Assembly: GCA_022360445.1 (NCBI GenBank)
Contig: JAKSCV010000056.1
Location: forward strand, 1-36,899
From: Gammaproteobacteria bacterium
GTDB lineage: Bacteria; Pseudomonadota; Gammaproteobacteria; UBA5861
Direction: 5' to 3'
Length of the DNA: 36,899 nt
Both the position numbers and the translations under genes were made by a program. Shown piece by piece: positions 3,048 to 36,261 of the stretch; the first letter of the stretch is position 1; the number at the start of each line of letters is the position of its first letter. Under the pieces are notes generated by a model that was given only the letters and a program-made list of their open reading frames with translations, ran no database searches and was not told the origin of the DNA.

Positions 3048-3902
3048 CTAAGCACTTTTATTTATACCTTGTAATACAGATTTCTTGTCTGCTTTGATTA
3101 ACTGGCTTTCTGTTTGATCAGTCCAAATCACTAGCGGAGAGCGCTCTCGCTCAGGATGCCTGATCACCTTAACAATGGCACCGAAAGCATGATAAATCGT
3201 TGCGGGCGTAAGGACATGAAAAGGCTCCCCCTGACACAACATTTTGCCGTTGCGGAGAATAGCGACCCGATCAGCATAGTAAGCCGCTAAGTTCAAATCA
3301 TGGAGTACAGCTAGAACCCCCACATGTGCTTCATGGGCAAATTTTTTGGCAACTGCCAACACCGAATGCTGGTGAATCAAATCAAGGGCTGATGTCGGTT
3401 CATCCAGCAACAAATAACGTGCCTGGTTATCTTCAGACGGCTGCCATATCTGGGCCAGTACACGTGCAAGATGCACCCGCTGCTGCTCGCCACCCGACAA
3501 GGTGGTAAAAACACGCTCACTCAAATGTGCCGTGCCAGTCGCTTTCAATGCATCGTATACAACTTCAGCAGACGCCTTATAACGTTCTCCGCGGTACGGA
3601 CTTCGCCCCATCATGGCAACCTGCAGCACCTTAAATGGAAAATTCAGGCGACTTTTTTGTGGTAGAACAGCCCGTTGTTTTGCCAATCGATTCGTCGACA
3701 ATGCCTGTAAAGGCTGCCCTGAAAGCGTCACTGCTCCCGAAGCGGGTTGGCACTCGCCAGATAAAACCTTCAGTAGAGTTGACTTCCCCGCCCCATTTTG
3801 ACCAAGCAATGCCAACATTTCTCCTGGCTGAATACAAAGCGAAATACTGTCGAGCAGCCACTTTTCGCCAACCTGATAACTCACCTGCGACATTTCAAGC
3901 AT
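3048..3902 (-). CDS. hmuV: heme ABC transporter ATP-binding protein HmuV
   Basis: This 284-residue cytoplasmic ATPase powers heme import through HmuU. I chose ATG 3902 (protein begins MLEMSQVSYQVGEKW) because AGGAGA lies a few bases upstream and it falls after the hmuU stop; a longer in-frame start at 3968 would overlap hmuU. Walker A GQNGAGKST is at about 34-42, signature LSGGEQQRVHLARVL at about 135, Walker B YLLLDEPTSALD at about 163, and the H-loop region VLHDLNLAA follows. These are typical of FecE/BtuD-like heme/siderophore ATPases. It is the fifth gene after the receptor in the leftward operon and is followed by the hmuS remnant. Confidence 0.93.
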   Translation of the reverse strand: MLEMSQVSYQVGEKWLLDSISLCIQPGEMLALLGQNGAGKSTLLKVLSGECQPASGAVTLSGQPLQALSTNRLAKQRAVLPQKSRLNFPFKVLQVAMMGRSPYRGERYKASAEVVYDALKATGTAHLSERVFTTLSGGEQQRVHLARVLAQIWQPSEDNQARYLLLDEPTSALDLIHQHSVLAVAKKFAHEAHVGVLAVLHDLNLAAYYADRVAILRNGKMLCQGEPFHVLTPATIYHAFGAIVKVIRHPERERSPLVIWTDQTESQLIKADKKSVLQGINKSA

Positions 3903-3925
3903 CACCTTTCTCCTGCAGATACGCT

Positions 3926-5041
3926 CTACCAGCTTTCGCCTCGCCGACGCTGTCGAAGCAACAACCATAGAAAAAATGGACCTCCCACTAGCGAAGTAAT
4001 GATGCCGATTGGCAACTCAGCTGGTGCAACAAGCGTTCGTGCGAGCAGGTCTGAAGCCAACAAAAGGCTTGCTCCCAAGAGTGCAGAAAAAGGCAATAAA
4101 AAGCGATGGTCCGGGCCAATCGACAACCGCAACAAGTGAGGCGTTATCAGTCCAATAAAGCCAATGATCCCGGCAAAAGAGACAGAAACACCCACGCACA
4201 GGGCAACTAACACAATGAGTCCTCTCTTGACCCATTCCAGGTTATAACCCAGATGCAAGGCTTCAGATTCACCAAGCAAAAGTGCATTGAGTGCATTCGC
4301 CCGCAGCGGTATCAGCACAATTGACAACAGCAGTATTGGTGCAGCCACACGCAGCTCACCCCAGCTTGCTCCCCCCAAGCTGCCCATACTCCAAAATGTC
4401 AACGTGCGCAGCTGCTCATCATTCGCCAGATATGTCAGCAAGCCGGTTACTGCAATGGTCAATGCATTTATCGCAATACCTGCCAACAACATCGTTGAAA
4501 CACTTGTTCGACTATTGAAATTAGAAAACTGATACACCAAGAAGGTTGTAACCAAGCCCCCTACAAAAGCGGCCAAGGGGAGCGCATAAATACCCCAAAA
4601 GGCTGTATACCCGCTTAAAAAAGTTGTTCCGAACACAATAACAGCAACGGCTGCCAGGGCCGCCCCACTGGATATTCCAATCAAGGCCGGGTCCGCAAGC
4701 GGGTTTCGAAAAAGCCCTTGCATGGCCGCACCTGAAATAGCCAGCCCAGCCCCAACAAGCACGGCCATGGCAACCCGTGGAAAACGAATCGACATAATAA
4801 TTTGCTGATAAGCAGGGTCTAACGAGCCGGCTAGAGAAAAACCAAGCGAGTCCACAAGTATGGAAATAATTTCTCTAGGGTTAATTGACACGGCACCTAC
4901 CCCAAGCGCCGTAACAGACACGGTGATCAGTAACACGAATAGACCTATGCAGAGGCTCCAACGGGGACTACCCACAGCATGAGCAACCGAGGATGCCGCA
5001 TCAACATTTTCGGAGCGGTGAGTGGCCGTTATTTCTCTCAT
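3926..5041 (-). CDS. hmuU: heme ABC transporter permease HmuU (FecCD/BtuC family)
   Basis: This is an inner-membrane permease of 371 residues from ATG 5041 (MREITATHRSE). The frame is open to 5131, but that longer form would overlap hmuT by more than 70 bases; an ATG at 5095 is also possible. About nine to ten hydrophobic helices are visible. Family-type segments include IRFPRVAMAVLVGAGLAISG, MQGLFRNPLADPALIGISSG, and GIIGFIGLITPHLLRL, the last around the coupling region that contacts the ATPase. It would pass heme from HmuT to the cytoplasm together with HmuV. The gap to hmuT (stop at 5058) is 16 bases. Confidence 0.92.
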   Translation of the reverse strand: MREITATHRSENVDAASSVAHAVGSPRWSLCIGLFVLLITVSVTALGVGAVSINPREIISILVDSLGFSLAGSLDPAYQQIIMSIRFPRVAMAVLVGAGLAISGAAMQGLFRNPLADPALIGISSGAALAAVAVIVFGTTFLSGYTAFWGIYALPLAAFVGGLVTTFLVYQFSNFNSRTSVSTMLLAGIAINALTIAVTGLLTYLANDEQLRTLTFWSMGSLGGASWGELRVAAPILLLSIVLIPLRANALNALLLGESEALHLGYNLEWVKRGLIVLVALCVGVSVSFAGIIGFIGLITPHLLRLSIGPDHRFLLPFSALLGASLLLASDLLARTLVAPAELPIGIITSLVGGPFFLWLLLRQRRRGESW

Positions 5042-5057
5042 TGCTTCACAGCTCTGT

Positions 5058-5996
5058 CTACCGGGTGAACTGTGCGGCTGGGTAGAGGTAAGCATGGAAG
5101 TCCTGAAGTGCCTCCCCTGCCCTTGGACCAAAACCTAAAAACCGTAAACCGTCGACCACCCTGATCTGTTTTTGTTGACCTGCTGGCGTCACGCCGACCG
5201 CCGGAATATCGCGCACTTTGTCTACCATGCGTACATTATTTTTCTCTGCGCCATGGCTGACAATGAGAATGGCATCTGGTGCTGCAGCTGCCAAGACTTC
5301 TGGATTGACCGGTTTATACCCCTCAAAATCTGTAAAGATATTCAGCCCCCCTGCCAGCTCAATCATCGCATTTGCCGCTGTCTTTTTACCTGCCGCCAAG
5401 GGAGAGCCCGACCCAATTGCCAAAACGAAGAGGACTTTTTTAACCCCCTTTTTTAGTTCTTGAGAGTAACCGGAAACCGTTGCTCCATTTGTATTTTCGA
5501 GCCCCTGGTGAGACATCTTTTGAATACTGTTTTCTACCTCTGAAAATTGTTTTTTGAGTTTTTCAACAAGTACCTGTCCTTTTTCTTCTTGTCCCACCAA
5601 TTGAGCAACCATTTGAATACGCTCAATAATGCTGCCGAGGTCATACCGTTCTTCGAACTGGACCAGCTCCACGCCACTGTTTCTCAATTGACGAACGACA
5701 GCAGGTGGCCCTGCACTTGTCGTCGCCAGGATATGTGTTGGTTTTAGAGACAAAATCCCCTCAATCGACAAATTCCGCTGGTAACCCACTTGCCTCAGTT
5801 TGAGGGCTGACGCCGGATACTGACTGGTGGTATCCACTCCAACTAACGCTTGCTCAGCGCCGAGTGCATAAATTATTTCGGTGACACTGCCATTGACAGA
5901 AACAATCCGCACAGCCTGAGCCTGGGCTGTAACCGCACTAGATAATAAGATCCAAGAAAAACTCAAAACAATAGAGCACTTAAGCCGGGGCATCAT
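5058..5996 (-). CDS. hmuT: periplasmic heme-binding protein HmuT
   Basis: This 312-residue protein has a Sec signal peptide (hydrophobic stretch 8-22, probable cleavage after an AQA near 25-28). It is a class III solute-binding protein that carries heme from the outer-membrane receptor to HmuU. VNGSVTEIIYALGAE near 34-48 and DTTSQYPA near 55-62 are family-type blocks. VGYQRNLSIEGILSLKPTH follows, with Tyr72 at the position proposed to ligate heme in PhuT-like proteins. The start overlaps the upstream hutZ stop (ATGATG, TGA at 5995-5993), so the genes are coupled. A Gly/Ser/Asn-rich insertion near 165-180 is somewhat unusual. Confidence 0.9.
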   Translation of the reverse strand: MMPRLKCSIVLSFSWILLSSAVTAQAQAVRIVSVNGSVTEIIYALGAEQALVGVDTTSQYPASALKLRQVGYQRNLSIEGILSLKPTHILATTSAGPPAVVRQLRNSGVELVQFEERYDLGSIIERIQMVAQLVGQEEKGQVLVEKLKKQFSEVENSIQKMSHQGLENTNGATVSGYSQELKKGVKKVLFVLAIGSGSPLAAGKKTAANAMIELAGGLNIFTDFEGYKPVNPEVLAAAAPDAILIVSHGAEKNNVRMVDKVRDIPAVGVTPAGQQKQIRVVDGLRFLGFGPRAGEALQDFHAYLYPAAQFTR

Positions 5997-6550
5997 GATG
6001 AAGGTGCCTGAAGTGGCAGGGATCTGGATGACGTTTTTCTCTCCGCTCGATGCCCTTCATTAAGATGTTTAACCATCTCCAGCGACTCACCCCCAAATGC
6101 ATACGCCTGGCCAAACCCTCTTACATACACACCTTTTTGGGGTGTGATTTTAAATAAATGAAAGTCATTAAAGGACTTCAAGACATTCAGAAATTGACCA
6201 AATTTCCCTGTAAATTGGTCCATAATGAGGTCAAAGTGGCGACACCACCTGAAAACTTCCTCAACTTCACAGGCTAAGGTAACGCGCCGACGGGCAAACA
6301 AGTGCTGGCACTCACTTTCGCTTTCAATAAACAACAAACTGGCTTTACCTGTATCGCGGAGATTTTGTGTATGTTTAGAAAGCTCACTCACGTAGACATA
6401 ATAATGTTTATCGTGTGCCAGGTAGGCCGCATAGCTGGCGTCTGGCAGCCCATCTGAAGAGACTGTGCCAATCAATACTGATTCGAAATCAGCAGGGAAG
6501 TTGATGTACTCAGAACGTACTGTACTTAAGTCAACCGGTTGTTTGTTCAT
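5993..6550 (-). CDS. hutZ: HugZ/HutZ family heme-degrading protein
   Basis: This 185-residue protein has the split-barrel (PNPOx-like) fold of heme utilisation proteins that bind and degrade heme in the cytoplasm. It closely follows the HutZ pattern: a PDASYAAYL segment near 36-44, LFARRRVTL at 84-92, LFKITPQKGVYVRGFGQAY near 132-150, and the C-terminal HLNEGHR with His167 at the place of the HutZ heme ligand. A GGGAG ribosome site precedes ATG 6550. It sits between the lipoprotein and hmuT genes in one direction. With hmuS broken, it is the only visible candidate for freeing iron from imported heme in this operon. Confidence 0.88.
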   Translation of the reverse strand: MNKQPVDLSTVRSEYINFPADFESVLIGTVSSDGLPDASYAAYLAHDKHYYVYVSELSKHTQNLRDTGKASLLFIESESECQHLFARRRVTLACEVEEVFRWCRHFDLIMDQFTGKFGQFLNVLKSFNDFHLFKITPQKGVYVRGFGQAYAFGGESLEMVKHLNEGHRAERKTSSRSLPLQAPSS

Positions 6551-6646
6551 TAGATGAAACTCCCATATATTTAAAACGCTGTGCGGCTAGGCCACACAGA
6601 AAGCCTCACTTTTTACTCAAAAAGAACCACCACTTCGCCTGTACTC

Positions 6647-7816
6647 TTACAGCGCTTTAAAACGGATCGTCAGATTCCCGCTTTCCCCGGTTTCATCGTA
6701 GTAGCTGAGGAATTGGAGCTTGTAGATAGCAATATCAGTCCCAACCGCAAAAACCCGGTAGTTAGGCCAGAGCTTGTGATTACCCGCAAGATTGTAGGCA
6801 TACCAACTGTTTTCAATAAAAACACCGGTGGGAGCATCCGCTTCGAGATACCGCTCAGGAAAGAGCTCTGGACCATCCCCAACACCGATATAGTTAAAGT
6901 CAGTACTCTGGATTGCTCCATAAGAACCACCTTCTTGACCGCTCCCTCGGATTCCGCCATTCGTCCACATATTCCACTCGTAACCGCTCGTGCTCACTTC
7001 GACCATGACATCCCAGCCAGCAGACTCTGTGGTGCAATCCACCTCAGACTCACTTTCAAAGTCAAAGCACCGTGAACCACCTCCTTGGCCAATCGAAGCC
7101 GTCCATTCTGTAGCAGTGGCATCGAAGACAACTTCGCCGTCTTGTTGGATAAACATTTCCAGCGTGATATCACGAGAAGCTTGAATAATATTGGTAACAT
7201 GCAGCTTGGCGAAGGCCTTTCCGTCTGCCGATTTGACGATATTCCAAGCATCGGGTTGTGCCGAAATGCTGTGGCTAACCGAGTCATATAAGGCCCAGGT
7301 CTCGTCACCTTGCAACGATCCATCTATTCTTGGCTTATCTTCATCAGCAACGAAATTTAGTGTGGAAGCATCCGTAAAGCCATCAAATGCGGCCTCCTCA
7401 GATTCTGCAGTCGCATTCATGAAAACGTTATTATCCGGATCACCTGCCGCATCATAAAAATCATCCTGTTCATCCGCCAAGGCCGCTGTGACAGAACCAG
7501 GGCCAGATGCGCCACCGTTGATTTTGGTTTTTGTTCGCTTAAAGGCAATATCCCAAACCGTATCAAGCGCGGCTTCTGCATCTGTCAGCTCGACTACGCG
7601 ACCCGTATCCAGATCAAAATACGTGTACTTGTTCAGCGGGTCAGTTGGTGAAGCACTCACGCCTCCTGCTGACGCATCAATTTGTACCGTGTTGCTGGGT
7701 GTCTCGCCATTGGGTGGCGTGTCGTCGTCACGCTCATCACTTGAGTCGCTGCACCCTGCAAACAAAAACGACAGGCATGCTGCGGTCAAAATGTATTTAA
7801 GATTTCTTCTTTCCAT
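6647..7816 (-). CDS. HmuY-like heme-binding lipoprotein
   Basis: This encodes 389 residues. The N-terminus has a lipoprotein signal with lipobox LFAGC (lipidated Cys22), then an acidic Asp/Pro/Asn linker. The body carries TYFDLDTGRVVEL and ALDTVWDIAFKRTKTKINGG, the opening pattern of HmuY-family proteins (hemophore-like lipoproteins first known from Bacteroidetes that pass heme to a TonB receptor), and a matching block around CFDFESESEVDCTTESAGWDV. It starts 26 bases after the receptor stop with GGAGA upstream, so it is cotranscribed with the receptor. Outer-membrane or surface location is inferred. Which residues bind heme cannot be read with confidence. Confidence 0.8.
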   Translation of the reverse strand: MERRNLKYILTAACLSFLFAGCSDSSDERDDDTPPNGETPSNTVQIDASAGGVSASPTDPLNKYTYFDLDTGRVVELTDAEAALDTVWDIAFKRTKTKINGGASGPGSVTAALADEQDDFYDAAGDPDNNVFMNATAESEEAAFDGFTDASTLNFVADEDKPRIDGSLQGDETWALYDSVSHSISAQPDAWNIVKSADGKAFAKLHVTNIIQASRDITLEMFIQQDGEVVFDATATEWTASIGQGGGSRCFDFESESEVDCTTESAGWDVMVEVSTSGYEWNMWTNGGIRGSGQEGGSYGAIQSTDFNYIGVGDGPELFPERYLEADAPTGVFIENSWYAYNLAGNHKLWPNYRVFAVGTDIAIYKLQFLSYYDETGESGNLTIRFKAL

Positions 7817-7842
7817 TTAATGTCTCCAGATTTTCTCTTGAT

Positions 7843-9900
7843 TTACCCTTGGAACTTGACGCCCGCATAGATAAACCGTCCTTCTTCAGGTCGACGGTCC
7901 CGTTCTGCTTCAGAGGGGTCTTTATGTTCGTCGGTCAGATTGTCGATACCAGCGAATAGCGTCAGTCGACTGCTGTATTGGTAGTTATATTTGAGGTCAA
8001 TGGCGTGCCAGGATGGTGAAACATTGGTATTTTCACTGCCGGTGAATTCCTCACTTTGCCATGTTGTCCGGACAAGGAATTCAGACTTCCAGCGCGGTAC
8101 AGCAATATCAAACCCGGCCTGGATTTGGTGTTCTGGCCTTTTCGGCAGCACTTTGTCAGTCAGTTCATTAATGGCATCCAAATAGCTGTAGCTAAAATCG
8201 AAGCCGAGCATTGTTGACAGCTGTGTTTGATAGGTCAGGTCAAACCCCTGGGTTCGGGCTTGTTCGATATTGGCATACCGGTAAACGCTATAATTAAGGT
8301 CCTGAACCTCATCGCCGTTGTAGCGTTCCGCTTCAATAAGGTTTTTGATTTCGTTGTAGTAGAAAGACAGATCTAAACGGTATGCTGCTTCTTGTAGTAT
8401 TTCGATGCCAAACTGCACACTGAAGGACTCTTCAGGGTCCAGGACCTTGGCCCCGGATAAATCGATCACTCCTTGCGCGTCATCTTCCCACTGGTTGACT
8501 TCGCTCCCCAGAACGATGTAGCCAATTGAACTGTGATTAAAAACATACCCTCTTTCTTTCAAATCAGGCACACGGTATCCCTGCCCAATACCCATACGAA
8601 TACTGGTCTCTGCGCGCCGAAACCACGCAGGACTGTACATGGCATTTAATTTGACTACAGTATGCGATCCAAAGTCGCTGTCATCCTGGAATCTGACACC
8701 GGGCAGCACTTCCCAACTGTCGCCAATAAAAATATCATCCTGAAAAAACAGCTCGATGTTGTCATGGGACAGATCGGGTAAGGTCTCTGAGCGCCCATCT
8801 TTAGTCTGATCAAGTTCATTATGGAAGAACACAGCACCGCTGGTGAGTAAATGATTTTCACCGAGCGGTTGATCGTACTGGATTTCGGCTTTATGAAAAC
8901 TCAGCTTGGCATGTCGCTGGTCTTCAACTACATCTTTCGTCGCATCGACGTCTCGCGCCGTTTTATCATCAAAATTTTCAGAGACCAAGTAACCCGACAG
9001 CTGTGCATCACCCGATAAATTTTGCCGATACAGTAAGGCGTGACTATATTTACTGACCTTCTCGACTTTCTTTTTCCTGACGAAACCAGTCCCAGGGAGA
9101 AAAACACCGGTATTTTTTACCAGATCTTCGTGGTAATAAGCGGGCTTATAGGTGAATTGAATGGCTTCATGCGGAGAAAAGCCCAACTCTGCGTCCACAT
9201 GAATTTTTTCTCCTTGATCCCCATTAGTTGTATACGTATCGGGATCAAGATCAAAGCCATCGCTGCTATTCACATTAAATGAAAGTGCACTTTCCCAAAC
9301 AGGGCCTTTATAAGAGACATTAGCCAGCAGATGCTTATTGGCCAGATCCCATGCATCACCCAGGTTTTTATCCCCCCAGGAACCTGCATCGGCAGTAACC
9401 CCATAGGCAAACCCACGTTCAGCCTTTCGAGTAATTACGTTGACCACCCCCCCCATGGCCGAACTGCCATAGAGGGCAGAAACAGCTCCTTTGATAATCT
9501 CGATATGATCAACGTCACCCACGCCAAGTTGGCTTAAATCTACCGACGAACCGGTTGACGGTGTTACAGGCTTGCCATCAATTAAGACGAGAACCCTGTC
9601 GGCACTGACGCCTTGCAAAACGATTTCATAACCACTTTTTCCATGGATTTTTTGCAGTAAGATGCCTGGTTGATAACGCAGAGCTTCAACCAAGTTTCGT
9701 GCATGTGTTTTTTCCAGCTGAGCTTTCGTAACCACCTCAGTGCGCACGGGAACATCTCTGAGCTTTCTTTCGGTACGCGTACCGGTCACAACAACGGTGT
9801 CAAGCTCAACAGCAAGTTGGGCATGCACACTTGCAGCAGGCATCACTAGGCTAGTCGCCAGTAAAGAGAGAACCATAATTTCTTTTACAGAGTCCCGCAT
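7843..9900 (-). CDS. hmuR: TonB-dependent heme/hemoprotein outer-membrane receptor
   Basis: This 685-residue receptor has a signal peptide ending near SVHA (25-28), a TonB-box-like DTVVVTGT (34-41), a plug domain (VRTEVVTKAQLEKTHARNL; VLVLIDGKPV; IEIIKGAVSALYGSSAMGG; VVNVITRK) and a full-length beta-barrel ending YAGVKFQG. A GYRVPDLKERGYVFNHSS stretch resembles the FRAP-region and following His of heme receptors, and LDPEES resembles the NPNL region. Its genomic position heading heme transport genes and a Fur-type promoter supports heme as substrate over a siderophore. The final residue is not aromatic, which is less common for barrel proteins. Ribosome-site match is weak. Confidence 0.9.
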   Translation of the reverse strand: MRDSVKEIMVLSLLATSLVMPAASVHAQLAVELDTVVVTGTRTERKLRDVPVRTEVVTKAQLEKTHARNLVEALRYQPGILLQKIHGKSGYEIVLQGVSADRVLVLIDGKPVTPSTGSSVDLSQLGVGDVDHIEIIKGAVSALYGSSAMGGVVNVITRKAERGFAYGVTADAGSWGDKNLGDAWDLANKHLLANVSYKGPVWESALSFNVNSSDGFDLDPDTYTTNGDQGEKIHVDAELGFSPHEAIQFTYKPAYYHEDLVKNTGVFLPGTGFVRKKKVEKVSKYSHALLYRQNLSGDAQLSGYLVSENFDDKTARDVDATKDVVEDQRHAKLSFHKAEIQYDQPLGENHLLTSGAVFFHNELDQTKDGRSETLPDLSHDNIELFFQDDIFIGDSWEVLPGVRFQDDSDFGSHTVVKLNAMYSPAWFRRAETSIRMGIGQGYRVPDLKERGYVFNHSSIGYIVLGSEVNQWEDDAQGVIDLSGAKVLDPEESFSVQFGIEILQEAAYRLDLSFYYNEIKNLIEAERYNGDEVQDLNYSVYRYANIEQARTQGFDLTYQTQLSTMLGFDFSYSYLDAINELTDKVLPKRPEHQIQAGFDIAVPRWKSEFLVRTTWQSEEFTGSENTNVSPSWHAIDLKYNYQYSSRLTLFAGIDNLTDEHKDPSEAERDRRPEEGRFIYAGVKFQG

Positions 9901-17873: not shown

Positions 17874-18737
17874 ATGACAACCTGTGCTTTAGATAGCCTA
17901 GCCAGTATTTTCGAGCGCTTCTCTCTGCGCGCTCATGTATTCAATACCGGACCGCTGTGCCAAGCATCCAGATACTCCCATGAGGCGAGATGCGGGCACA
18001 TCCATGTATTGAAACAGGGGGCTATGCGGGTTGAAACCCCGACCAAATCTGCCGAAATTATTCGCGCACCTTACTTGCTGTTTTATATGAAGCCGGTAAC
18101 TCACCGGCTGGTTCCATTGACGGAAGAAGGAGACGCGATCACAGTTTGTGGTGAAATTGATTTTGGCGATGGATTGGAGAACCCAGTCACCCAGGTGATG
18201 CCGGGGCTGATCCCGATTGAACTGGACAGTAATCCGCACCTTTCAACCATTCTCGACTTGTTATTTGAAGAGGCGTTTAACCTGGCCTGTGGTCGCCAGG
18301 CGGCATTGGATAGAATCTGCGAATTACTGGTGATACAACTACTGCGCATCAGCATAGAAGACGATAGCAGCGATTTTGGCTTGTTGGCAGGCCTGTCGGA
18401 TCAGCGCCTGGCAAAGGCATTGACCTGTATTCACAAGGAACCTGAAAAGGCGTGGACACTAGAGAAACTTGCCAGCGAAGCAGGCATGTCCCGCGCCAGC
18501 TTTGCAGTAAAATTCCGCGATACACTGGGCATGACAGCAGGTGATTACCTGGCCCATTGGCGGCTGGGTGTGGCAAAGAGCCTACTTAAAAAAGGTCGGC
18601 CCATATCTTTGGTTGCCGATGAAGTAGGCTATAGCAGCCCCGCTGCGTTCAGCCGTGCTTTTGCCGGGCGTTTTGGCCAGACACCCAGCATATGGTTGAA
18701 ACAGGCCTGGCAGATGAAACCAGCCACCGCACGCTAA
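17874..18737 (+). CDS. AraC family transcriptional regulator (cupin_6 type N-domain)
   Basis: This encodes 287 residues. The N-terminal cupin-like sensor region (1-170) contains CGHIHVLKQGAMRV and the IRAPYLLFYMKPVTHRL segment. The two C-terminal helix-turn-helix units (about 190-285) show WTLEKLASEAGMSRASFAVK and ISLVADEVGYSSPAAFSRAF with GQTPSIWL at the end. It is divergent from the AhpD-like gene, and the 116-base gap between them probably holds both promoters. The effector is unknown. Confidence 0.9.
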   Translation: MTTCALDSLASIFERFSLRAHVFNTGPLCQASRYSHEARCGHIHVLKQGAMRVETPTKSAEIIRAPYLLFYMKPVTHRLVPLTEEGDAITVCGEIDFGDGLENPVTQVMPGLIPIELDSNPHLSTILDLLFEEAFNLACGRQAALDRICELLVIQLLRISIEDDSSDFGLLAGLSDQRLAKALTCIHKEPEKAWTLEKLASEAGMSRASFAVKFRDTLGMTAGDYLAHWRLGVAKSLLKKGRPISLVADEVGYSSPAAFSRAFAGRFGQTPSIWLKQAWQMKPATAR

Positions 18738-19969: not shown

Positions 19970-20899
19970 CTAAACCGGTTTCTGCGCTCGATACGCCCTG
20001 GGCGAAACGCCAAATTTACCCTGAAAAGCACGGCTAAACGCCGCCGGTGATTGATAGCCTGTTTCAACAGCCACCTGCTGAATAGGCCGCCGGGTATCGC
20101 CGAGTAACTCCAATGATTTCTGTAATCGCCATTCGGACAAATAGGTCATGGGGGTTTCCCCAACCAGTCTCCTAAACCGCTCGGAAAAACGGCTTCGCGA
20201 CATGGCTACCTCACAAGCCAAAGAGCCCACTGTCCAGGGTTTATCCGGGTTCCGATGAATCAACTGTAGTGATTTGGCAATTCTGGTATCCCGAAGGGCT
20301 TCTAACATAAATGACTGCCGGTCACCAGCACCCATTACCGACTGCAGGATTTCCATAAAAACAATTTCAGACAGGCGAGTCACCGCTGCGGTGGACCCCA
20401 AACGTTCAGTAAAAACCCGCTCCGCAATCAGCCGTAAGGACTCATCAAGCAAAGGGAGTTTTTTCCTGCCAGCAGCCGTGACGGTAATAAAATCCGGTAG
20501 ATTTCGCAGGATAGGGTGATCGGCACCGGGCCGGAAAGAAAAATGTCCACATACCATTTGTGTTTCCAGCCCCGCCGACTTAGAGCCATAAACCAATAGA
20601 CCATCCCCCTTATAACCGGACTGGCTGATGATTTTTTCCAGCGGTGGTACCGTTTTTTGTGGCGCGTCCGAGAGGATATGAGAACGTCCCTTCGGCACTA
20701 GGATAATATCACCGGGCGACAGAGCCTGATATTGATCTTCACCAACCCTAACGTGACAGCACCCTTTAACTAGCAAGTGAAACCGAGCTGCTTCCGCTAG
20801 AGTGGGTACAGTTACTGCCCATTTACCACTGAACTCAGTGCGAAAATACAGCGTTCCTTTCAAGTTAAGAGTACGGAGAATATCGTTAAGCAAATCCAC
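19970..20899 (-). CDS. AraC family transcriptional regulator (cupin_6 sensor)
   Basis: About 309 residues. No ATG fits; GTG 20899 gives a typical MDLLNDILRTL start, while a TTG two codons earlier (20905) is also possible. The N-terminal cupin sensor shows FHLLVKGCCHVRVG, LSPGDIILVPKGRSHILSD and MVCGHFSF. The C-terminal double HTH shows WTVGSLACEVAMSRSRFSER and IQQVAVETGYQSPAAFSRAF with GVSPRAYRAQ. The likely target is the YHS-VOC gene set downstream on the same strand, which is inference. Confidence 0.9.
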   Translation of the reverse strand: MDLLNDILRTLNLKGTLYFRTEFSGKWAVTVPTLAEAARFHLLVKGCCHVRVGEDQYQALSPGDIILVPKGRSHILSDAPQKTVPPLEKIISQSGYKGDGLLVYGSKSAGLETQMVCGHFSFRPGADHPILRNLPDFITVTAAGRKKLPLLDESLRLIAERVFTERLGSTAAVTRLSEIVFMEILQSVMGAGDRQSFMLEALRDTRIAKSLQLIHRNPDKPWTVGSLACEVAMSRSRFSERFRRLVGETPMTYLSEWRLQKSLELLGDTRRPIQQVAVETGYQSPAAFSRAFQGKFGVSPRAYRAQKPV

Positions 20900-21033
20900 T
20901 TTCAAAATCCATGAAAATGAACAAGATTACGCCTCTTTCTGCGTATCAGTTGATTCAAAGTCTATGCATTTTATCCTTCCGTATTAACGCAGAGATTCGC
21001 TTCAAACAAATTTTCAGTGTTAACGATCCCTAC

Positions 21034-21591
21034 TTACCTTTGACACAGCATTTGGGCCGCCAGTTTTTTGGCAAGCTGTGCAGCATCACGATCACCGCGG
21101 GTATGCGCACGCACAATAGCGCCATCAACCAGAAGCGAAAACTGTTTCGCCATTAACTGCCTCTGCCGTCTGTTAGGAATTTCGACTAGACCATGTTCAA
21201 TTAAGTCCTGCATCGCGGCTTTATGTTCAGCAGCCAACCTGTGTATTGCATTTCCTTCTTCAGCATATTCAGCGCTGGCATTAATAAAATTACAACCAAA
21301 AAAATGGTCACCCCGAAACCACTCGTCCAGTACATCAAAGATTGCCAATCCCGGTGACCGCCCGCTCTCGCGGGCTTGTTCAACTGCCTTGCCAATAGCC
21401 TGTATCAATTGCTCATGCCGTTGCCGTAACACCGCAATGACCAGATCGTCTTTGGAACGAAAGTGTTTGTACAAGGTCGCTTTTGAAACTCCGGATTCCG
21501 CCAGTATTCGGTCAATACCAGTGGCATGGTAACCATGTTCATTAAAAAGCCGGTAGGCAGTGTCCACGAGGTGCTGTTTACGGATCTGCAT
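21034..21591 (-). CDS. TetR family transcriptional repressor
   Basis: This 185-residue protein starts at ATG 21591 (a TTG at 21621 in the same frame lacks a ribosome site). The N-terminal HTH is canonical: HLVDTAYRLFNEHGYHATGI then ILAESGVSKATLYKHFRSKD. The ligand domain has GCNFINASAEYAEEGNAIHR, typical of a subgroup that senses small electrophiles or aromatic compounds. It is divergent from the VOC-PPOX pair and separated by two palindromes that are its likely operators. Confidence 0.92.
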   Translation of the reverse strand: MQIRKQHLVDTAYRLFNEHGYHATGIDRILAESGVSKATLYKHFRSKDDLVIAVLRQRHEQLIQAIGKAVEQARESGRSPGLAIFDVLDEWFRGDHFFGCNFINASAEYAEEGNAIHRLAAEHKAAMQDLIEHGLVEIPNRRQRQLMAKQFSLLVDGAIVRAHTRGDRDAAQLAKKLAAQMLCQR

Positions 21592-21642
21592 AGTTGCTGT
21601 TTCCCTGGCTGGTAAAGTCAACGAGAGGATACAGAAAAAGGC

Positions 21643-21702
21643 TTGACGTGAACAGATCTGTTCACTTAACCTATCTCAAAAGGTGAACAGATCTGTTTAC
21701 CT
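21643..21702 (+). promoter_or_regulatory. two near-identical palindromic operators in the TetR/VOC divergent promoter
   Basis: Operator 1 (21648-21665) is a perfect 18-base palindrome, GTGAACAGATCTGTTCAC. Operator 2 (21681-21702) is a 22-base palindrome with one mismatched pair and the same core, GAACAGATCTGTT. Their centres are 35 bases apart. TTGACG (21643-21648) is a plus-strand -35, and operator 1 fills the spacer before TAACCT at about 21667-21672. This is the layout of a TetR repressor blocking its own and the neighbouring promoter. Confidence 0.75.
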
Positions 21703-21728
21703 CTATACAATTTATTGGAGAGATACCC

Positions 21729-22130
21729 ATGCACCCATGTACTCAAGGCATTCACCACCTGGGGTTAACGGTAAAAAACATTCACGAAACATCCCGGTTC
21801 TTTTGCGATCACCTAGGCTTTGAAGTCGTCGGCGAAAAGCCGGATTACCCAGCCATTTTTGTTAGCGATGGCACGATCATGTTAACTCTCTGGCAGGTCA
21901 AGGGCGGCGGCTCAACAGTGTCTTTTGACCGCCACCACAACATTGGGCTGCATCACTTTGCGCTCAAAGTTGTCGATCGTGAAACACTTGAGGCGCTATG
22001 CGAAAAACTAGAAGACCATAGCGACGTTAATATTGAATTCAAGCCCGAGCCTCTTGGGAAAACCAGTGCGCTTCATATGATGTGTACCCTACCGGGGGGC
22101 ATCAGGGCCGAATTCATTGCGGCCGAGTGA
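21729..22130 (+). CDS. VOC family protein (glyoxalase-like)
   Basis: This 133-residue protein has TQGIHHLGLTVKNIHETSRF with the first metal His, NIGLHHFALKVVDRETLEAL with the middle His, and a C-terminal GGIRAEFIAAE that ends with the Glu ligand. It is therefore a plausible metal-dependent VOC enzyme rather than a binding protein. TTGGAGAG precedes the ATG. It is the first gene of a two-gene set with the PPOX protein (9-base gap) downstream of the TetR operators. Confidence 0.9.
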   Translation: MHPCTQGIHHLGLTVKNIHETSRFFCDHLGFEVVGEKPDYPAIFVSDGTIMLTLWQVKGGGSTVSFDRHHNIGLHHFALKVVDRETLEALCEKLEDHSDVNIEFKPEPLGKTSALHMMCTLPGGIRAEFIAAE

Positions 22131-22139
22131 GGTGTCATC

Positions 22140-23045
22140 ATGAATACGACTCAAGAGGTCTGGCACGCTGGCGAGCTAGCCGCACAGGCTCGGGCAGGTG
22201 TTAAGAAAAAAATGAGCAGCATCGGTCCACGGGTGATCCGGAATTACATGCCCACTGAGCACCGGGAATTTTTCACCAGCCAGTCTCTGGTAATCGTAGG
22301 CAGTGAAGATAAAAAAGGCGATTTGTGGGCCAGCCCAATATTCGGTCACCCAGGTTTTATCCAGTCCCCCACCGCCAAATTACTCGCCATCGATACCTCA
22401 GCATTCTATTCACATCTGGTTTTCCCCCAACTCAACATCGGCCATCAGGTGGGGTTGCTCGGTATTGACTTTGAAACTCGCCGGCGCAATCGCTTAAACG
22501 GGGTCGTAACCGAGAAAAACAAGCACCATATTTCCATCAAAGTTCAACAGAGCTTCGGTAATTGCCCCCAATACATTCAGCAACGCCGGATAGAGATTCA
22601 ACCACAGCGTGGTCAAATCACGCGCACGTTCCTGAGCAGCTGGAGCAGCCGCCTACGAGAATTCATTGCTCGGGCCGACACCTGCTTTATCGCCAGTGCC
22701 TATGCGGTACCTCATGCGGATGAAAGCGCAGGAATGGATGTTTCCCATCGCGGAGGCCAGCCTGGATTCATTGGATTCGACGAACACGATCGACTGACGA
22801 TCCCTGATTATCGAGGCAACTTTTTTTTCAATACCGTTGGCAACCTGACAGAAGACCCCCGGGCGGGTTTGCTCTTTCTGGATTTTTCCGAAGGACTCAT
22901 CATCACCTTGACCATGACCGCCGAGGTCATCTGGAAAACCGAAAATCCAATACTCTGCGGAGGGTACGAGAGAGTCATTCGGTTATCGCTGAAAGGCGGA
23001 TATCTTATTCGCAATGCCCTTCCTCTCATTGGGAATAGCGGATGA
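22140..23045 (+). CDS. pyridoxamine 5'-phosphate oxidase-like flavin-binding protein
   Basis: This 301-residue protein has two split-barrel halves. The first includes REFFTSQSLVIVGSEDKKGD, LWASPIFGHPGFIQSP and LNIGHQVGLLGIDFETRRRN. The second includes ADTCFIASAYAVPHADESAG, MDVSHRGGQPGFI, RLTIPDYRGNFFFNTVGNLT and RAGLLFLDFSEG. These blocks match the PPOX class annotated as flavin-nucleotide-binding proteins; some have a fused ferredoxin reductase, absent here. It is likely FMN-dependent. Together with the VOC protein and TetR it may handle a toxic small molecule, which is inference. Confidence 0.87.
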   Translation: MNTTQEVWHAGELAAQARAGVKKKMSSIGPRVIRNYMPTEHREFFTSQSLVIVGSEDKKGDLWASPIFGHPGFIQSPTAKLLAIDTSAFYSHLVFPQLNIGHQVGLLGIDFETRRRNRLNGVVTEKNKHHISIKVQQSFGNCPQYIQQRRIEIQPQRGQITRTFLSSWSSRLREFIARADTCFIASAYAVPHADESAGMDVSHRGGQPGFIGFDEHDRLTIPDYRGNFFFNTVGNLTEDPRAGLLFLDFSEGLIITLTMTAEVIWKTENPILCGGYERVIRLSLKGGYLIRNALPLIGNSG

Positions 23046-23098: not shown

Positions 23099-23560
23099 AT
23101 GAAAAATATAGAGTACAAAGCACTAAACCAAGTTAACTCCGAACAACTCTTATGCTTGTTAAACAAGGAAAAAATACGCACGCATCTCATGGAACACCAC
23201 CTCTTCGACAGGGAATCTTTACAGGCCTGGCTGAATGAGAAGATGAAAATCGACTCCAAACCAGGGTGTCGCATACGGACGGTCCTCGTCGAAGAGCAAT
23301 GTGTGGGTTGGTGTGGCATTCAAGAGGACAAAGGCAATTTCGAATTTGCAATTATCCTGGATGACTGCCACTGGGGACTGGGACGAAAAATCTTCCGTGA
23401 TCTGATGGTCTGGGCAAAAGAACTAGGGCATCAAACCGTTTCAATTCATTTCCTTCATACCCGGCCGGAGTATCAATTCCTGCGGAAAATGGCAAAAAGC
23501 GTATATAAATCTGAAATACAAGGAAACACATTCACCACTTATACGCTACCGGTGGATTAG
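23099..23560 (+). CDS. GNAT-like acetyltransferase
   Basis: This 153-residue protein fits the GNAT fold of the RimJ/RimL-like type: IRTHLMEHHLFDRESLQAWL, then RIRTVLVEEQCVGWCGIQ, FEFAIILDDCHWGLGRKIFR (acetyl-CoA loop as WGLGRK), and HTRPEYQFLRKMAKSVYKSE near the end. Ribosome site is weak. It is on the plus strand 53 bases after the PPOX gene and could be cotranscribed. Substrate unknown. Confidence 0.75.
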   Translation: MKNIEYKALNQVNSEQLLCLLNKEKIRTHLMEHHLFDRESLQAWLNEKMKIDSKPGCRIRTVLVEEQCVGWCGIQEDKGNFEFAIILDDCHWGLGRKIFRDLMVWAKELGHQTVSIHFLHTRPEYQFLRKMAKSVYKSEIQGNTFTTYTLPVD

Positions 23561-27085: not shown

Positions 27086-27895
27086 ATGATCGAAAAAGAA
27101 TACAACTCGTCCGCTGATCGAATGCCGGTAGTTTTTGTTGGTCACGGCACGCCCATGAATGCCGCCCAAGACAACCAATGGAGCCGCGGCTTTGTCACCC
27201 TCCGGGACTACGTACCAAAGCCTGCGGCTATTTTGGCCATATCGGCACACTGGTACGTCAGCGGCACTTATCTGACGTCACACCTTCAGCCACCGACCCT
27301 GCATGATTTTGGTGGCTTCCCACAGCCGCTTTATGAACTTGAGTATCCCGCACCGGGGCACGCTGGACTTACCGAGTCGGTACGTGAGCTCCTCGGTAAA
27401 GAACACGTACAGCTTAGTGAAGACTGGGGGTTAGATCACGGTATCTGGTCGGTTTTGCGCTGGATGTATCCAGAAGCAGATGTCCCAGTTGTGCAGCTTA
27501 GTATCAACCGCAACCTTAATATTGTTCAGCACTATGAAATTGGACAATCACTCGCCAAATTGCGGGATCAGAATGTTCTTATTTTCGCCAGCGGGAATAT
27601 TGTTCACAATCTTCGAGATGCTATCACACAGATGCGGTTCGATACCGCTGTCACGCCTGATTGGGCCAGTCGTTTTGACGAAGCCGTTAAGCAAGCCATA
27701 CTCGCACATGATATCGAAGCACTTTTATCGATCTACCCGCATACGGCTGACGCGCAGCGTGCTCACCCCACGCCAGAGCACTGGTTACCACTGATTTACG
27801 CAGCGGGGGCTGCACATGAAAAGGATCACATTAGGTTTCCAACCGAGGGATTCGATTCAGGCTCACTCTCAATGAGAAATATTATTTTCGGATGA
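27086..27895 (+). CDS. ygiD: YgiD-type extradiol dioxygenase (4,5-DOPA dioxygenase family)
   Basis: This 269-residue protein is of the class III extradiol dioxygenase LigB family. Metal-ligand-like His residues appear as VGHGTP (His20), SAHW (His55) and EHWLPL (His232). His174 in the GNIVHNLRD segment and His118 in LDHGIWSVL are the usual catalytic neighbours. E. coli YgiD opens DOPA at 4,5 and binds zinc in some structures. CAGGAG lies just upstream of ATG 27086. It is the last gene of the LysR-divergent set. A catechol ring-opening role is family knowledge; the actual substrate is not known. Confidence 0.92.
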   Translation: MIEKEYNSSADRMPVVFVGHGTPMNAAQDNQWSRGFVTLRDYVPKPAAILAISAHWYVSGTYLTSHLQPPTLHDFGGFPQPLYELEYPAPGHAGLTESVRELLGKEHVQLSEDWGLDHGIWSVLRWMYPEADVPVVQLSINRNLNIVQHYEIGQSLAKLRDQNVLIFASGNIVHNLRDAITQMRFDTAVTPDWASRFDEAVKQAILAHDIEALLSIYPHTADAQRAHPTPEHWLPLIYAAGAAHEKDHIRFPTEGFDSGSLSMRNIIFG

Positions 27896-33869: not shown

Positions 33870-34478
33870 TTAAGTCGCTATCGTGCGGAAGGTCAGGTTA
33901 ACCCGAGGGGTGTGAACGGTTTTTGTTGGCGGCAGACGATGCAGCCAGTGGGTTTGGGTGGTTCCTTTCATAATAAGCAGGCTGCCATGGGCCAAAATTT
34001 GCGAAACCGTTTCTTTGGTTTTCTTATGCTTGAATGAAAACTGACGCGGTGCGCCTAAACTCAGCGAACCTATGGCCCCATTACGTTTTAGATCTTTTTC
34101 CCCATCACTGTGCCAGGCCATGCCTTCGCTGCCATCGTGATACAGATTAAGCAGGCAGGCGTTATAGGTTTCTCCGCTTTCAGATTGCACAATCTCTTTT
34201 AATTTCGACAACACTGGCACCCAAGGCAGGGCGGTTTTGGTGGTTTTGGAATAGGTATAAGAAAAGGGCTGATCGGCATACCAGGCGACTTTGCGCTGGG
34301 TGATGATTTTTTTGCCAAAGATAATGGCCTCGTCATGTTGCCAAGGGATTTCACGCATTAAAACGTTAAAGTACTGATCCGCCTCCAGCTGCGCCATAAC
34401 GGGTCCGTAATAGTGCACCACACCATCACCGGGCAGTAAATTACGCGGTTTGCCGTCTATTTGTTCAATGAGATCCAT
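33870..34478 (-). CDS. alkB: AlkB family DNA repair dioxygenase
   Basis: This 202-residue 2OG-Fe(II) oxygenase removes methyl groups from 1-meA and 3-meC in DNA by oxidation. The iron site reads HSD at 123-125 (His123, Asp125), with the distal His as His180 in QTHWLHRLPP. NACLLNLYHDGSEGMAWHSD precedes it, and PRVNLTFR (Arg192, Arg198) at the end binds 2-oxoglutarate and is the diagnostic ABH2/3-like motif. Length and motif order are complete. The start at ATG 34478 lies 22 bases inside the previous gene, so translation may be coupled. Confidence 0.93.
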   Translation of the reverse strand: MDLIEQIDGKPRNLLPGDGVVHYYGPVMAQLEADQYFNVLMREIPWQHDEAIIFGKKIITQRKVAWYADQPFSYTYSKTTKTALPWVPVLSKLKEIVQSESGETYNACLLNLYHDGSEGMAWHSDGEKDLKRNGAIGSLSLGAPRQFSFKHKKTKETVSQILAHGSLLIMKGTTQTHWLHRLPPTKTVHTPRVNLTFRTIAT

Positions 34479-34702
34479 TGTTGATAATTATCCCGCATAC
34501 AGTGGCCGCACGGTCGAAATCCTTTTTCTAGTGCCTCTTTTTCTAAGCCAAAGAAAACCCGGTTTTCACGCTTCATTCGTTTTCCGGATGTGCAATCCAA
34601 GGTTCCATAGATTTTGAGTCCAATATGCCCGCCAAATTGAATAGAGCGATCTTTTATATGTTGTCTGAGCGTATCATTATCAATGTCACTATGCCGGATC
34701 AT
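34457..34702 (-). CDS. stand-alone Ada-type metal-binding domain protein
   Basis: This 81-residue protein starts at ATG 34702, just after the 2OG oxygenase stop (a longer frame to 34777 overlaps that gene). It reads GGHIGLKIYGTLDCTSGKRM, then KRENRVFFGLEKEALEKGFR and PCGHCMRDNYQQWISLNK. The layout is that of the Ada N-terminal zinc domain (IYGxxDCxxxK...RVFF...GFRPCxxC). In E. coli Ada, Cys38, Cys42, Cys69 and Cys72 bind zinc, and Cys38 takes the methyl group. Here Cys37, Cys65 and Cys68 correspond to three of them, and the Cys42 place is Lys41. So zinc binding may use another residue or be lost. Confidence 0.8.
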   Translation of the reverse strand: MIRHSDIDNDTLRQHIKDRSIQFGGHIGLKIYGTLDCTSGKRMKRENRVFFGLEKEALEKGFRPCGHCMRDNYQQWISLNK

Positions 34703-34706
34703 AGGA

Positions 34707-35420
34707 TTAGCTCTGCGCATCATGAAAAATAATGCCCATTGTATAGCGCTCACCGCGATGGAGTTCGCTAACGCCATGGCGCATATGGGCTCGATAATAG
34801 CCGCGCGTGCCTTTGACCGGCCTAAAATTCGTGGTGAAGATAATCATATCTCCGCGCTTCGGCTTTAACACACTGGCTTTTGATTGCGCTCTGGGCACTT
34901 GTTCGGTCAGTACGAATTCCCCGCCTGTGTAATCCTTATCGGGTTCATTGAGAAAGCAGGCCGCTTGCAGCGGGAAATAGAGGTCGCCATATAAGTCCTG
35001 ATGCAGGGTGTTAAAACCGCCTGCGCTATATTTTAAGATCAAGGGGGTCGGCTTTTTCTGTCCCGCCCCATGGCAGGCCTTTAGCAGCTCTTGGTATGAC
35101 CCTGGAAAACGCTCAGTGATGCGCAGTAGATGCATCCATAAATTGGCTATCGGAACCAGCTTCGGATAGAGGTTTTCCCGTAAGTCCTGCACCAGATCCG
35201 GCAACGGGTAATCCCAGTACTTGTAACACCCCAGACCGAAACGGTAACGCTCCATCATCACCGTTTTGCGAAAGCCGGCTTGATGATCAAACAGGTCAAT
35301 CAGGCTGTCACACTGCGCGGTATTGAGAAACCCTGGTATCAGTGCATAACCTGCACGGTTCAGTTTATCGTTCACGCTTTGCCAAACTATGGACTCGATC
35401 TGGTTGACCACATCAGTCAT
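34707..35420 (-). CDS. 2OG-Fe(II) oxygenase in the alkylation-repair operon
   Basis: This 237-residue protein starts at ATG 35420 (MTDVVNQIESI). The frame is open to 35519, but that would lie inside ada. The iron-binding HxD motif is present in ILKYSAGGFNTLHQDLYGDL, and the distal His with 2OG Arg follow in RHGVSELHRGERYTMGIIFH. GYALIPGFLNTAQCDSLIDL and the CYKYWDYPLPDLVQDLRENL segment belong to a prolyl-4-hydroxylase-like class without a set function. It is between ada and the Ada zinc-domain gene with only short gaps, so a part in alkylation repair or damage response is likely, but what it oxidises is unknown. Confidence 0.85.
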   Translation of the reverse strand: MTDVVNQIESIVWQSVNDKLNRAGYALIPGFLNTAQCDSLIDLFDHQAGFRKTVMMERYRFGLGCYKYWDYPLPDLVQDLRENLYPKLVPIANLWMHLLRITERFPGSYQELLKACHGAGQKKPTPLILKYSAGGFNTLHQDLYGDLYFPLQAACFLNEPDKDYTGGEFVLTEQVPRAQSKASVLKPKRGDMIIFTTNFRPVKGTRGYYRAHMRHGVSELHRGERYTMGIIFHDAQS

Positions 35421-36261
35421 TATGCCCGTCCGTTCTGGCGGCTTCCCAGCCGATGATGGCGGTCTTTTTGTTTGGTCCCCACATATAACCGCCCACCTTA
35501 CCGCTGCTTTGAATGACACGGTGACAGGGAATTAGAAAAGCCACAGGATTGCTGCCAATCGCCGAGCCGACCGCGCGGGAGGCTTTTGCATTGCCGATGT
35601 CCTGGGCGATTTTGCCATAGGTGGATACGGTGCCCATGGGGATTTTTAACAGGCTTTCCCAGACTTTCAGTTGAAATGGTGTTCCGGCGAGATGCAGCTT
35701 GATTTGATCAAGCTGTCGCCAGTCCTGCTGAAAAATGAACAGAGCATCCTGTTGGAATTGATCCGCAATCTGATGGAACAATGCAGCCGGAAACCGCGCC
35801 TGCAAATCATGGAGGGCTTTTTGCTCATCTTCTTCAAAATGCATATGGCACACCCCCTTATGAGTGGAGGCGACAATGATTTTTCCGAAGGGGCTTGCAG
35901 CAAAACAGTAATTGATTTTGAGATCCGCGCCGCCATTTTTAAACTCACCGGGGGTCATGCCTTCTATAGAAACAAACAAATCATGCAGACGGCTCGGTCT
36001 CGACAACCCGGTTTCATAGGCCGCATCCATCAAGGTCATGTTGTTTTTCAGCAACGCTCTAGCATAATCGAGGCTGATATATTGCATGAACTTCTTGGGA
36101 CTGACACCAGCCCATTCACTGAACATTTTTTGAAAATGAAATGGGCTGACATGCACGGCTTGCGCAATTTCATCCAAAGAGGGTTGCGCTTTGAAATGTT
36201 CACGAATGAAATGTATCGCTTTTTCTATGCGGTGATAATCGATCTGTTTTTGGTTGGCCAT
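35413..36261 (-). CDS. ada: Ada-like AraC-HTH/O6-methylguanine methyltransferase
   Basis: This 282-residue protein fuses an AraC-type HTH (about 8-110: IEKAIHFIREHFKAQPSLDE, IAQAVHVSPFHFQKMFSEWA, GLSRPSRLHDLFVSIEGMTP) to a methyltransferase domain with GTPFQLKVWESLLKIPMGTV, STYGKIAQDIGNAKASRAVG and the active site PCHRVI (Cys246), followed by GKVGGYMWGPNKK. It lacks the N-terminal zinc/phosphotriester domain of E. coli Ada, which is encoded separately two genes downstream. The next gene starts 8 bases inside its end. It lies 10 bases after the SDR stop, so one operon with SDR upstream is possible. Confidence 0.92.
   Translation of the reverse strand: MANQKQIDYHRIEKAIHFIREHFKAQPSLDEIAQAVHVSPFHFQKMFSEWAGVSPKKFMQYISLDYARALLKNNMTLMDAAYETGLSRPSRLHDLFVSIEGMTPGEFKNGGADLKINYCFAASPFGKIIVASTHKGVCHMHFEEDEQKALHDLQARFPAALFHQIADQFQQDALFIFQQDWRQLDQIKLHLAGTPFQLKVWESLLKIPMGTVSTYGKIAQDIGNAKASRAVGSAIGSNPVAFLIPCHRVIQSSGKVGGYMWGPNKKTAIIGWEAARTDGHND

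What the first reader, a model, noticed from the sequence alone, without database searches (positions are those of the whole stretch)
21034..23045. TetR with two matched palindromic operators driving a VOC-PPOX pair
One perfect 18-base palindrome and one near-perfect 22-base palindrome with the same GAACAGATCTGTT core lie 35 bases apart, one filling the -35/-10 spacer. The regulated pair, a metal-type VOC protein and a flavin-binding PPOX protein, has no known pathway, so the effector and substrate are open questions.
Basis: partly seen in the sequence, partly recalled or inferred. Interest (0 to 1): 0.5.

Follow-up and report, generated by a model that had tools for sequence, protein, structure and literature searches.

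The report
TetR-operator switch for VOC-PPOX enzymes
A small repressor gene and two matching DNA sites that its protein most likely binds sit at the promoter of a pair of probable detoxification enzymes, and the same arrangement recurs in distant bacteria, so the switch is very probably real although what it detoxifies is unknown.

Summary
O1 (21648-21665) is a perfect 18-base palindrome and O2 (21681-21702) a 22-base palindrome with one broken pair; they share GAACAGATCTGTT, 35 bases apart, between divergent tetR and VOC-PPOX genes. The exact core occurs nowhere else in the assembly. The strongest evidence is comparative: of 57 loci with a related VOC gene, 18 carry a related TetR; 17 of these 18 have sites like GTNNACAGNNCTGTNNAC (16 two, one one), from Gammaproteobacteria to Chloroflexota, and none of the other 39 has one before VOC. 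In nine compared loci TTGAC(A/G) abuts O1, which fills the promoter spacer. I read it as a local repressor switch working like E. coli nemR-nemA-gloA: same repressor superfamily, an invariant cysteine aligned with NemR Cys106, an operator in the core promoter, a VOC enzyme and an FMN-type flavoprotein. It is not a NemR ortholog, and the VOC lacks one glyoxalase I ligand. A GNAT gene is probably a third member. Most VOC and PPOX relatives lack this TetR. Inducer and substrate are unknown; electrophile sensing is inference. A new variant of a known kind.

The parts
21034..21591 (-). tetR-family regulator, 185 aa from the ATG at 21591 (a TTG at 21621 would give 195 aa); Cys100 in FFGCNF
   Evidence: TetR_N PF00440 E 1.1e-18; no NCBIfam equivalog reaches its cut-off; Cys invariant in 19 of 19 aligned rows incl. 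E. coli NemR
21643..21648 (+). -35 hexamer TTGACG of the VOC-PPOX promoter; its last G is the first base of O1
   Evidence: TTGAC(A/G) directly before O1 in nine of nine compared loci
21648..21665 (.). operator O1, perfect 18-base palindrome filling the promoter spacer
21667..21672 (+). weak -10 TAACCT after an 18-base spacer; five relatives have TATAGT at the same place
   Evidence: inference from alignment
21681..21702 (.). operator O2, 22-base palindrome with one broken pair; would lie just after the transcription start
   Evidence: start site is inferred
21729..22130 (+). VOC-family metal-type enzyme, 133 aa; H10, H76, E128 aligned with three E. coli GloA ligands
   Evidence: PF00903 E 3.8e-13; AF2 model pLDDT 91 with VOC-fold matches
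22140..23045 (+). PPOX-type flavin-binding protein, 301 aa; Pfam recognises only residues 172-267
   Evidence: PF01243 E 1.4e-8; AF2 model pLDDT 84; PDB matches to FMN-binding split barrels over about 120 columns with weak E-values
23099..23560 (+). GNAT-like acetyltransferase, probable third gene of the operon
   Evidence: PF13302 E 1.7e-4, below gathering score; same order in L030 and L031 (88% and 64% identity); overlaps the PPOX gene end in L031

Best explanation
A local TetR-type repressor binds O1 and O2 as dimers. O1 covers the spacer of the VOC-PPOX promoter and blocks RNA polymerase; O2 lies just past the inferred start and blocks initiation further; binding in the shared region may also limit tetR itself. 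A thiol-reactive electrophile or oxidant modifies Cys100 in the ligand domain, the repressor lets go, and VOC, PPOX and probably GNAT are made to remove the compound: PPOX as a flavin oxidoreductase and VOC as a three-ligand metal enzyme. Shown by sequence: gene layout, two palindromes, promoter overlap, conservation, co-occurrence with this TetR. Inferred: binding, repression, the inducer class, the cysteine's role and the chemistry.
For: Of 57 VOC loci, 18 have a related TetR: two sites in 16, one site in 1. Of the 39 others, 17 of 17 have no site within 3 mismatches in the 400 bases before VOC and 22 of 22 none within 2 mismatches before VOC. Pattern TTGACNTNNACAGNNCTGTNNAC in 369 class genomes: 4 matches, 3 at TetR-VOC loci; reversed control 0. 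TTGAC(A/G)-O1 layout in nine of nine. The residue after SK/TK in the recognition helix goes with the fourth operator base: Ala loci (8) 29 of 32 half-sites A; Thr loci (7) 0 of 28. Cys aligned with NemR Cys106. E. coli nemR has a palindrome between -35- and -10-like hexamers, read by eye. A related TetR in Acaryochloris is divergent from FAD oxidoreductase, glutaredoxin, GST and PPOX genes.
Against: No binding, expression or induction data. The cysteine is also in three related TetRs with other neighbours (L084-L086), so it is no proof of thiol sensing. The helix-operator correlation may rest on one or two evolutionary changes, and L092 (Thr with GTGAAC) breaks it. L063 (Enterobacter plasmid) has TetR, VOC and PPOX but another palindrome. 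Four of the 18 TetR-VOC loci show no PPOX gene in the stretch held (L054, L056, L057, L092), and among 24 VOC loci of the class and phylum samples only one has PPOX, so the pair is not fixed. TetR identity to NemR is 24% over 108 residues. The -10 in the window is weak.
Confidence: 0.6

Rival explanations
1. Same repressor-operator switch, but the TetR senses a specific non-covalent ligand (for example an aromatic or lipid-derived substrate) and VOC-PPOX is a catabolic or modifying pathway, not electrophile defence.
For: Many TetR regulators bind ligands in a pocket (general knowledge); the cysteine is common in the wider subfamily; VOC NCBIfam matches below cut-off include extradiol dioxygenases; a 4,5-DOPA-type dioxygenase lies at 27086-27895.
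Against: None of the 14 proteins between 17206 and 27895 run matched a transporter or a known catabolic pathway set (by-eye judgement of the tables); several neighbours are redox or detoxification types; glutaredoxin and GST in the Acaryochloris cluster.
Confidence: 0.31
2. The palindromes serve only tetR autoregulation and VOC-PPOX is expressed from another promoter or constitutively.
For: The sites lie in a shared divergent region; a second promoter-like match overlaps O2.
Against: O1 sits between -35 and -10 of a promoter that points to VOC in nine of nine loci; in three Pectobacterium loci, where tetR and VOC run the same way, the two sites lie before tetR, which precedes VOC.
Confidence: 0.06
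3. The palindromes are chance or belong to another regulator, such as the AraC-type gene next door.
For: Perfect 18-base palindromes are expected about 13 times per 3.46 Mb by chance (my arithmetic).
Against:: conserved with TetR presence over large distances and absent without it; Psychromonas L032 shows no AraC-like gene among its ORFs of 110 aa or more (by eye) yet keeps both sites.
Confidence: 0.02

Closest known systems
E. coli nemR-nemA-gloA (NemR, TetR family)
   Same: TetR repressor with a cysteine at the aligned place; palindrome between -35- and -10-like hexamers (by eye); controls an FMN-type flavoprotein and, by readthrough, a VOC enzyme (passages of PMC3739934)
   Different: 24% identity over 108 residues; half-sites TAGACC/GGTCTA in place of GTGAAC/GTTCAC; flavoprotein is an old yellow enzyme (recalled), not PPOX; GloA has a fourth metal ligand (E56) that is M51 here; nemR, nemA and gloA run the same way
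AltR of Pantoea ananatis (thiosulfinate-responsive TetR)
   Same: TetR with an essential Cys100, inverted repeat with N6 centre, local detoxification cluster (abstract and passages of PMC13178969)
   Different: inverted repeat CAATCTAC-N6-GTAGATTG; other target genes; AltR sequence not compared here
DitR of Stenotrophomonas maltophilia
   Same: TetR with cysteine-dependent diamide response, several boxes, one between -35 and -10 (passages of PMC9342713)
   Different: inverted repeat CATAC-N5-GTATG; controls MFS transporters; two cysteines needed
PPOX-reductase fusion proteins in relatives
   Same: N-terminal part homologous to the window PPOX protein; fusions lie beside VOC in L038, L041, L044 and L063
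   Different: the window protein is the PPOX part alone and would need another electron donor

Membership tests
TetR/AcrR regulators | N-terminal TetR_N helix-turn-helix domain | tested here: met
   PF00440 67.1 bits, cut-off 24
TetR/AcrR regulators | binds a palindromic operator near its own gene | not testable with these tools
   palindromes present and conserved, binding untested
NemR orthologs | sequence close to NemR | tested here: not met
   24% over 108 residues; no NemR model among the 24 NCBIfam hits
NemR orthologs | NemR-type operator TAGACC-N4-GGTCTA (name recalled; letters seen upstream of nemR) | tested here: not met
   window sites GTGAACAGATCTGTTCAC; nemR upstream TAGACCGACTGGTCTA
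NemR orthologs | cysteine aligned with Cys106 | tested here: met
NemR orthologs | release from DNA by electrophiles or HOCl | not testable with these tools
   needs purified protein
Glyoxalase I (GloA) | four metal ligands H5, E56, H74, E122 (assignment recalled; residues seen) | tested here: not met
   H10, H76, E128 match; E56 aligns with M51
VOC superfamily | glyoxalase/dioxygenase fold | tested here: met
   PF00903; AF2 model and PDB matches, best E 5.1e-9
PPOX/FMN split-barrel proteins | PNPOx_N domain and FMN-binding split barrel | tested here: met
   PF01243 35.6 bits, cut-off 28.1; best PDB match E 1.8e-4 over 122 columns; flavin binding itself untested
PPOX TIGR04025 subfamily | score above curated cut-off 170 | tested here: not met
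   61.1 bits

The most novel reading that the evidence does not exclude
VOC and PPOX form one undescribed two-enzyme detoxification unit in which a flavin protein (in relatives fused to its own NAD-linked, mostly 2Fe-2S, reductase) works with a three-ligand 2-His-1-Glu metal enzyme on the same reactive compound, under a cysteine-sensing TetR family with its own operator code GTNNAC-AGNNCT-GTNNAC.
Probability: 0.28. Interest if true: 0.62.

Novelty: new variant of a known kind. Interest (0 to 1): 0.42.

Why it matters
It gives a defined repressor, two defined candidate operators and a short target list, found from Gammaproteobacteria to Chloroflexota, for enzymes whose substrate is unknown. The inducer of the repressor can be screened directly with a reporter and would point to the substrate of the VOC and PPOX proteins and of the PPOX-reductase fusions.

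Tried and rejected
A genome-contig scan with the PPOX protein found no relative; the VOC alignment found 29 loci. Paper searches: the 10-base centre of the operators, ACAGATCTGT, gave 39 papers, 20 listed, none about such a regulator by title. Searches for a TetR/VOC/PPOX system gave nothing on point in their listings (15 of 36 listed; 15 of 626; 10 of 10; 2 of 2; 3 of 3; 1 of 1). From I opened PMC9736018 (PA3973): in the passages seen its motif is SAAGRNMTGAACG and a VOC gene appears once in a table of ChIP peaks; not this system. PMC12274486 (GloA2 glyoxal response) was seen in passages and gave no TetR-VOC-PPOX link there. No paper was read whole. Anti-phage role: no PADLOC match for the four proteins. 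FosA-like fosfomycin resistance: the fold matches FosA entries among many VOC proteins; FosA residues were not tested. A relation of the PPOX protein to the HutZ/HugZ-like gene at 5993-6550 was not supported (hhalign probability 0.93%). The promoter of tetR itself was not resolved. The idea that the Ala/Thr change proves a cognate pair was weakened: L087 fits, L092 does not.

Rows left out of the 18-locus count: L008 and L018 (same loci as L030 and L045), L059 (TetR and PPOX, no VOC; three sites with 2 mismatches each), L061 (TetR without VOC or PPOX; no site). L039 and L062 have TetRs of another type near VOC (E 6.7e-7 and 5.1e-6; no GC motif by eye), no site, and are among the 39 without. 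Of the 22 loci without TetR, one (L088) has a 2-mismatch place, not before VOC. The site count has limits: in L057 the second site has 3 mismatches.

Full report
Observation. Between a tetR gene on the minus strand (21034-21591) and VOC (21729-22130) and PPOX (22140-23045) genes on the plus strand lie two palindromes. O1 (21648-21665) is perfect over 18 bases. O2 (21681-21702) pairs at 10 of 11 positions. The shared 18-mer starts 35 bases apart. Within the window no other place matches the 18-mer with up to 3 mismatches; shuffles give mean 0.02. The assembly has the exact 13-base core only here. The window is a whole contig of a draft genome. The order has one other held genome, whose contig has the length and gene content of L030, a Halothiobacillaceae bacterium (UBA5861) metagenome assembly.

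Comparison. I searched for PPOX, VOC and TetR relatives in genomes and plasmids. The sister genome keeps gene order and both sites; Zhongshania keeps TetR (77%), VOC (73%), PPOX (66%), GNAT (64%) and both sites; more distant Psychromonas, Psychrosphaera, Cognaticolwellia, a gammaproteobacterium (NORP163), three Chloroflexi assemblies and three Pectobacterium keep TetR, VOC and two sites each. The Pectobacterium loci show no PPOX homolog in the stretch held. From a sample of 398 genomes of the phylum came L087 (TetR, VOC, PPOX, two sites) and L092, from another class (TetR, VOC, no PPOX seen, one site). A recount over all 57 VOC loci held gives 18 with a related TetR at E below 1e-10; 17 of the 18 have the sites. 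The exception is an Enterobacter plasmid (L063) with a different 22-base palindrome. In L040 and L063 a gene lies between TetR and VOC. Start-to-start spacing in the 15 loci is 26 to 37. Shuffled copies of those 15 stretches reach two sites (up to 3 mismatches) in 0 to 8 of 1000. Of the 39 VOC loci without this TetR none has a site before VOC (17, 400 bases, up to 3 mismatches; 22, up to 2 mismatches). These loci are related, so they are not 18 independent events.

How common. The switch is a minority arrangement. Of 369 class genomes, 21 have a PPOX relative; this TetR was found at the window, the sister and G257 among the 23 places (L014 has only a weak, short TetR hit). Of the 29 VOC loci, 18 have a full or partly held PPOX relative, 7 a short weak one, 4 none; of 24 VOC loci of the class and phylum samples one has PPOX. 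So the VOC-PPOX pair is frequent among the closest VOC relatives and rare further out.

Promoter. Aligning nine divergent loci, TTGACA or TTGACG abuts O1 in all nine; an 18-base spacer leads to TATAGT in five and TAACCT in two; in the other two TACCCT or TACCTT follows a 17-base spacer. A search of 369 genomes of the class with TTGACNTNNACAGNNCTGTNNAC found four places; three are TetR-VOC loci and the fourth lies beside phosphate-uptake-like and porin-like genes, named by eye. O2 would lie just after the start point; this is inferred.

TetR. It carries TetR_N and matches no NCBIfam equivalog above cut-off. Cys100 is invariant in 19 of 19 aligned rows, where E. coli NemR has Cys106. One study gives Cys106 for bleach sensing by NemR, another Cys21 and Cys116 for electrophiles (passages of PMC3739934). 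AltR needs its Cys100 (abstract and passages of PMC13178969); DitR needs Cys92 and Cys127 (passages of PMC9342713). Because three related TetRs with other neighbours have the same GC motif, thiol sensing is plausible, not shown. The helix residue Ala or Thr tracks the fourth operator base in 15 loci (29 of 32 half-sites A with Ala, 0 of 28 with Thr); of two later loci one fits and one does not.

Enzymes. The VOC protein has H10, H76 and E128 invariant in 30 of 30 rows; they align with three GloA ligands while GloA E56 aligns with M51, so it is not a classical glyoxalase I. The AF2 model is confident (pLDDT 91) and matches VOC structures. The PPOX protein is 301 aa; its AF2 model (pLDDT 84) shows two strand-rich halves. 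It matches FMN-binding split barrels over about 120 columns with weak E-values; the call does not say which half. Five of five long relatives scanned carry an NAD-binding reductase domain after the PPOX part, four of them also 2Fe-2S (a sixth protein scanned was a short PPOX protein). So PPOX probably works as a flavin oxidoreductase module. GNAT follows in the window, the sister and Zhongshania, overlapping PPOX in the last.

Setting. Neighbours include an AhpD-like protein, a second VOC, a YHS protein, two AraC-type regulators with below-cut-off RclR similarity, and a YgiD-type dioxygenase. This suits a stress or detoxification island but does not name a compound.

Judgement. A real, conserved repressor-operator switch, most like nemR-nemA-gloA in how it would work, with a different repressor branch, operator sequence and flavoprotein. 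The regulatory layer I hold at about 0.9; the electrophile and cysteine step at about 0.5 to 0.6. After the recount of PPOX linkage I lowered the joint odds slightly (0.62 to 0.60; novel reading 0.30 to 0.28).

Noticed in passing
L063 (Enterobacter cloacae plasmid OW849001.1) 1379-6173: A TetR annotated NemR, a VOC gene and a 670-aa PPOX-FAD-NAD-2Fe-2S fusion annotated 'flavohemoprotein'; a perfect 22-base palindrome AGGTAGAACGATCGTTCTACCT begins 34 bases beyond the tetR start.
   Followed up: partly
L059 (Acaryochloris marina plasmid pREC1) 1542-5404: Related TetR divergent from FAD oxidoreductase, glutaredoxin, GST and PPOX genes, with three operator-like sites of 2 mismatches each.
   Followed up: partly
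window 3048-9900: Probable hemin uptake cluster, named by eye: ABC ATPase, permease, binding protein, TonB-type receptor; the gene 5993-6550 is HutZ/HugZ-like below cut-off.
   Followed up: no
window 33870-36261: Alkylation-repair-like genes: an AlkB-like protein by eye (no NCBIfam match at 1e-10) and an AraC-Ogt fusion (ogt above cut-off, Ada below).
   Followed up: no
window 17874-18737 and 19970-20905: Two AraC-type regulators, both with below-cut-off similarity to RclR; the second has a Cupin_6 domain.
   Followed up: partly
L040 2706-3285, L062 2379-2843: A small protein gene (annotated DUF1348 in L062; by eye SnoaL-like in L040) sits between TetR and VOC.
   Followed up: no
L046, L047, L050, L052, L053, L058, L060, about 500 bases before VOC: Alphaproteobacterial VOC relatives are preceded by a short PPOX-type protein (about 190 aa) in place of the long one.
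   Followed up: no
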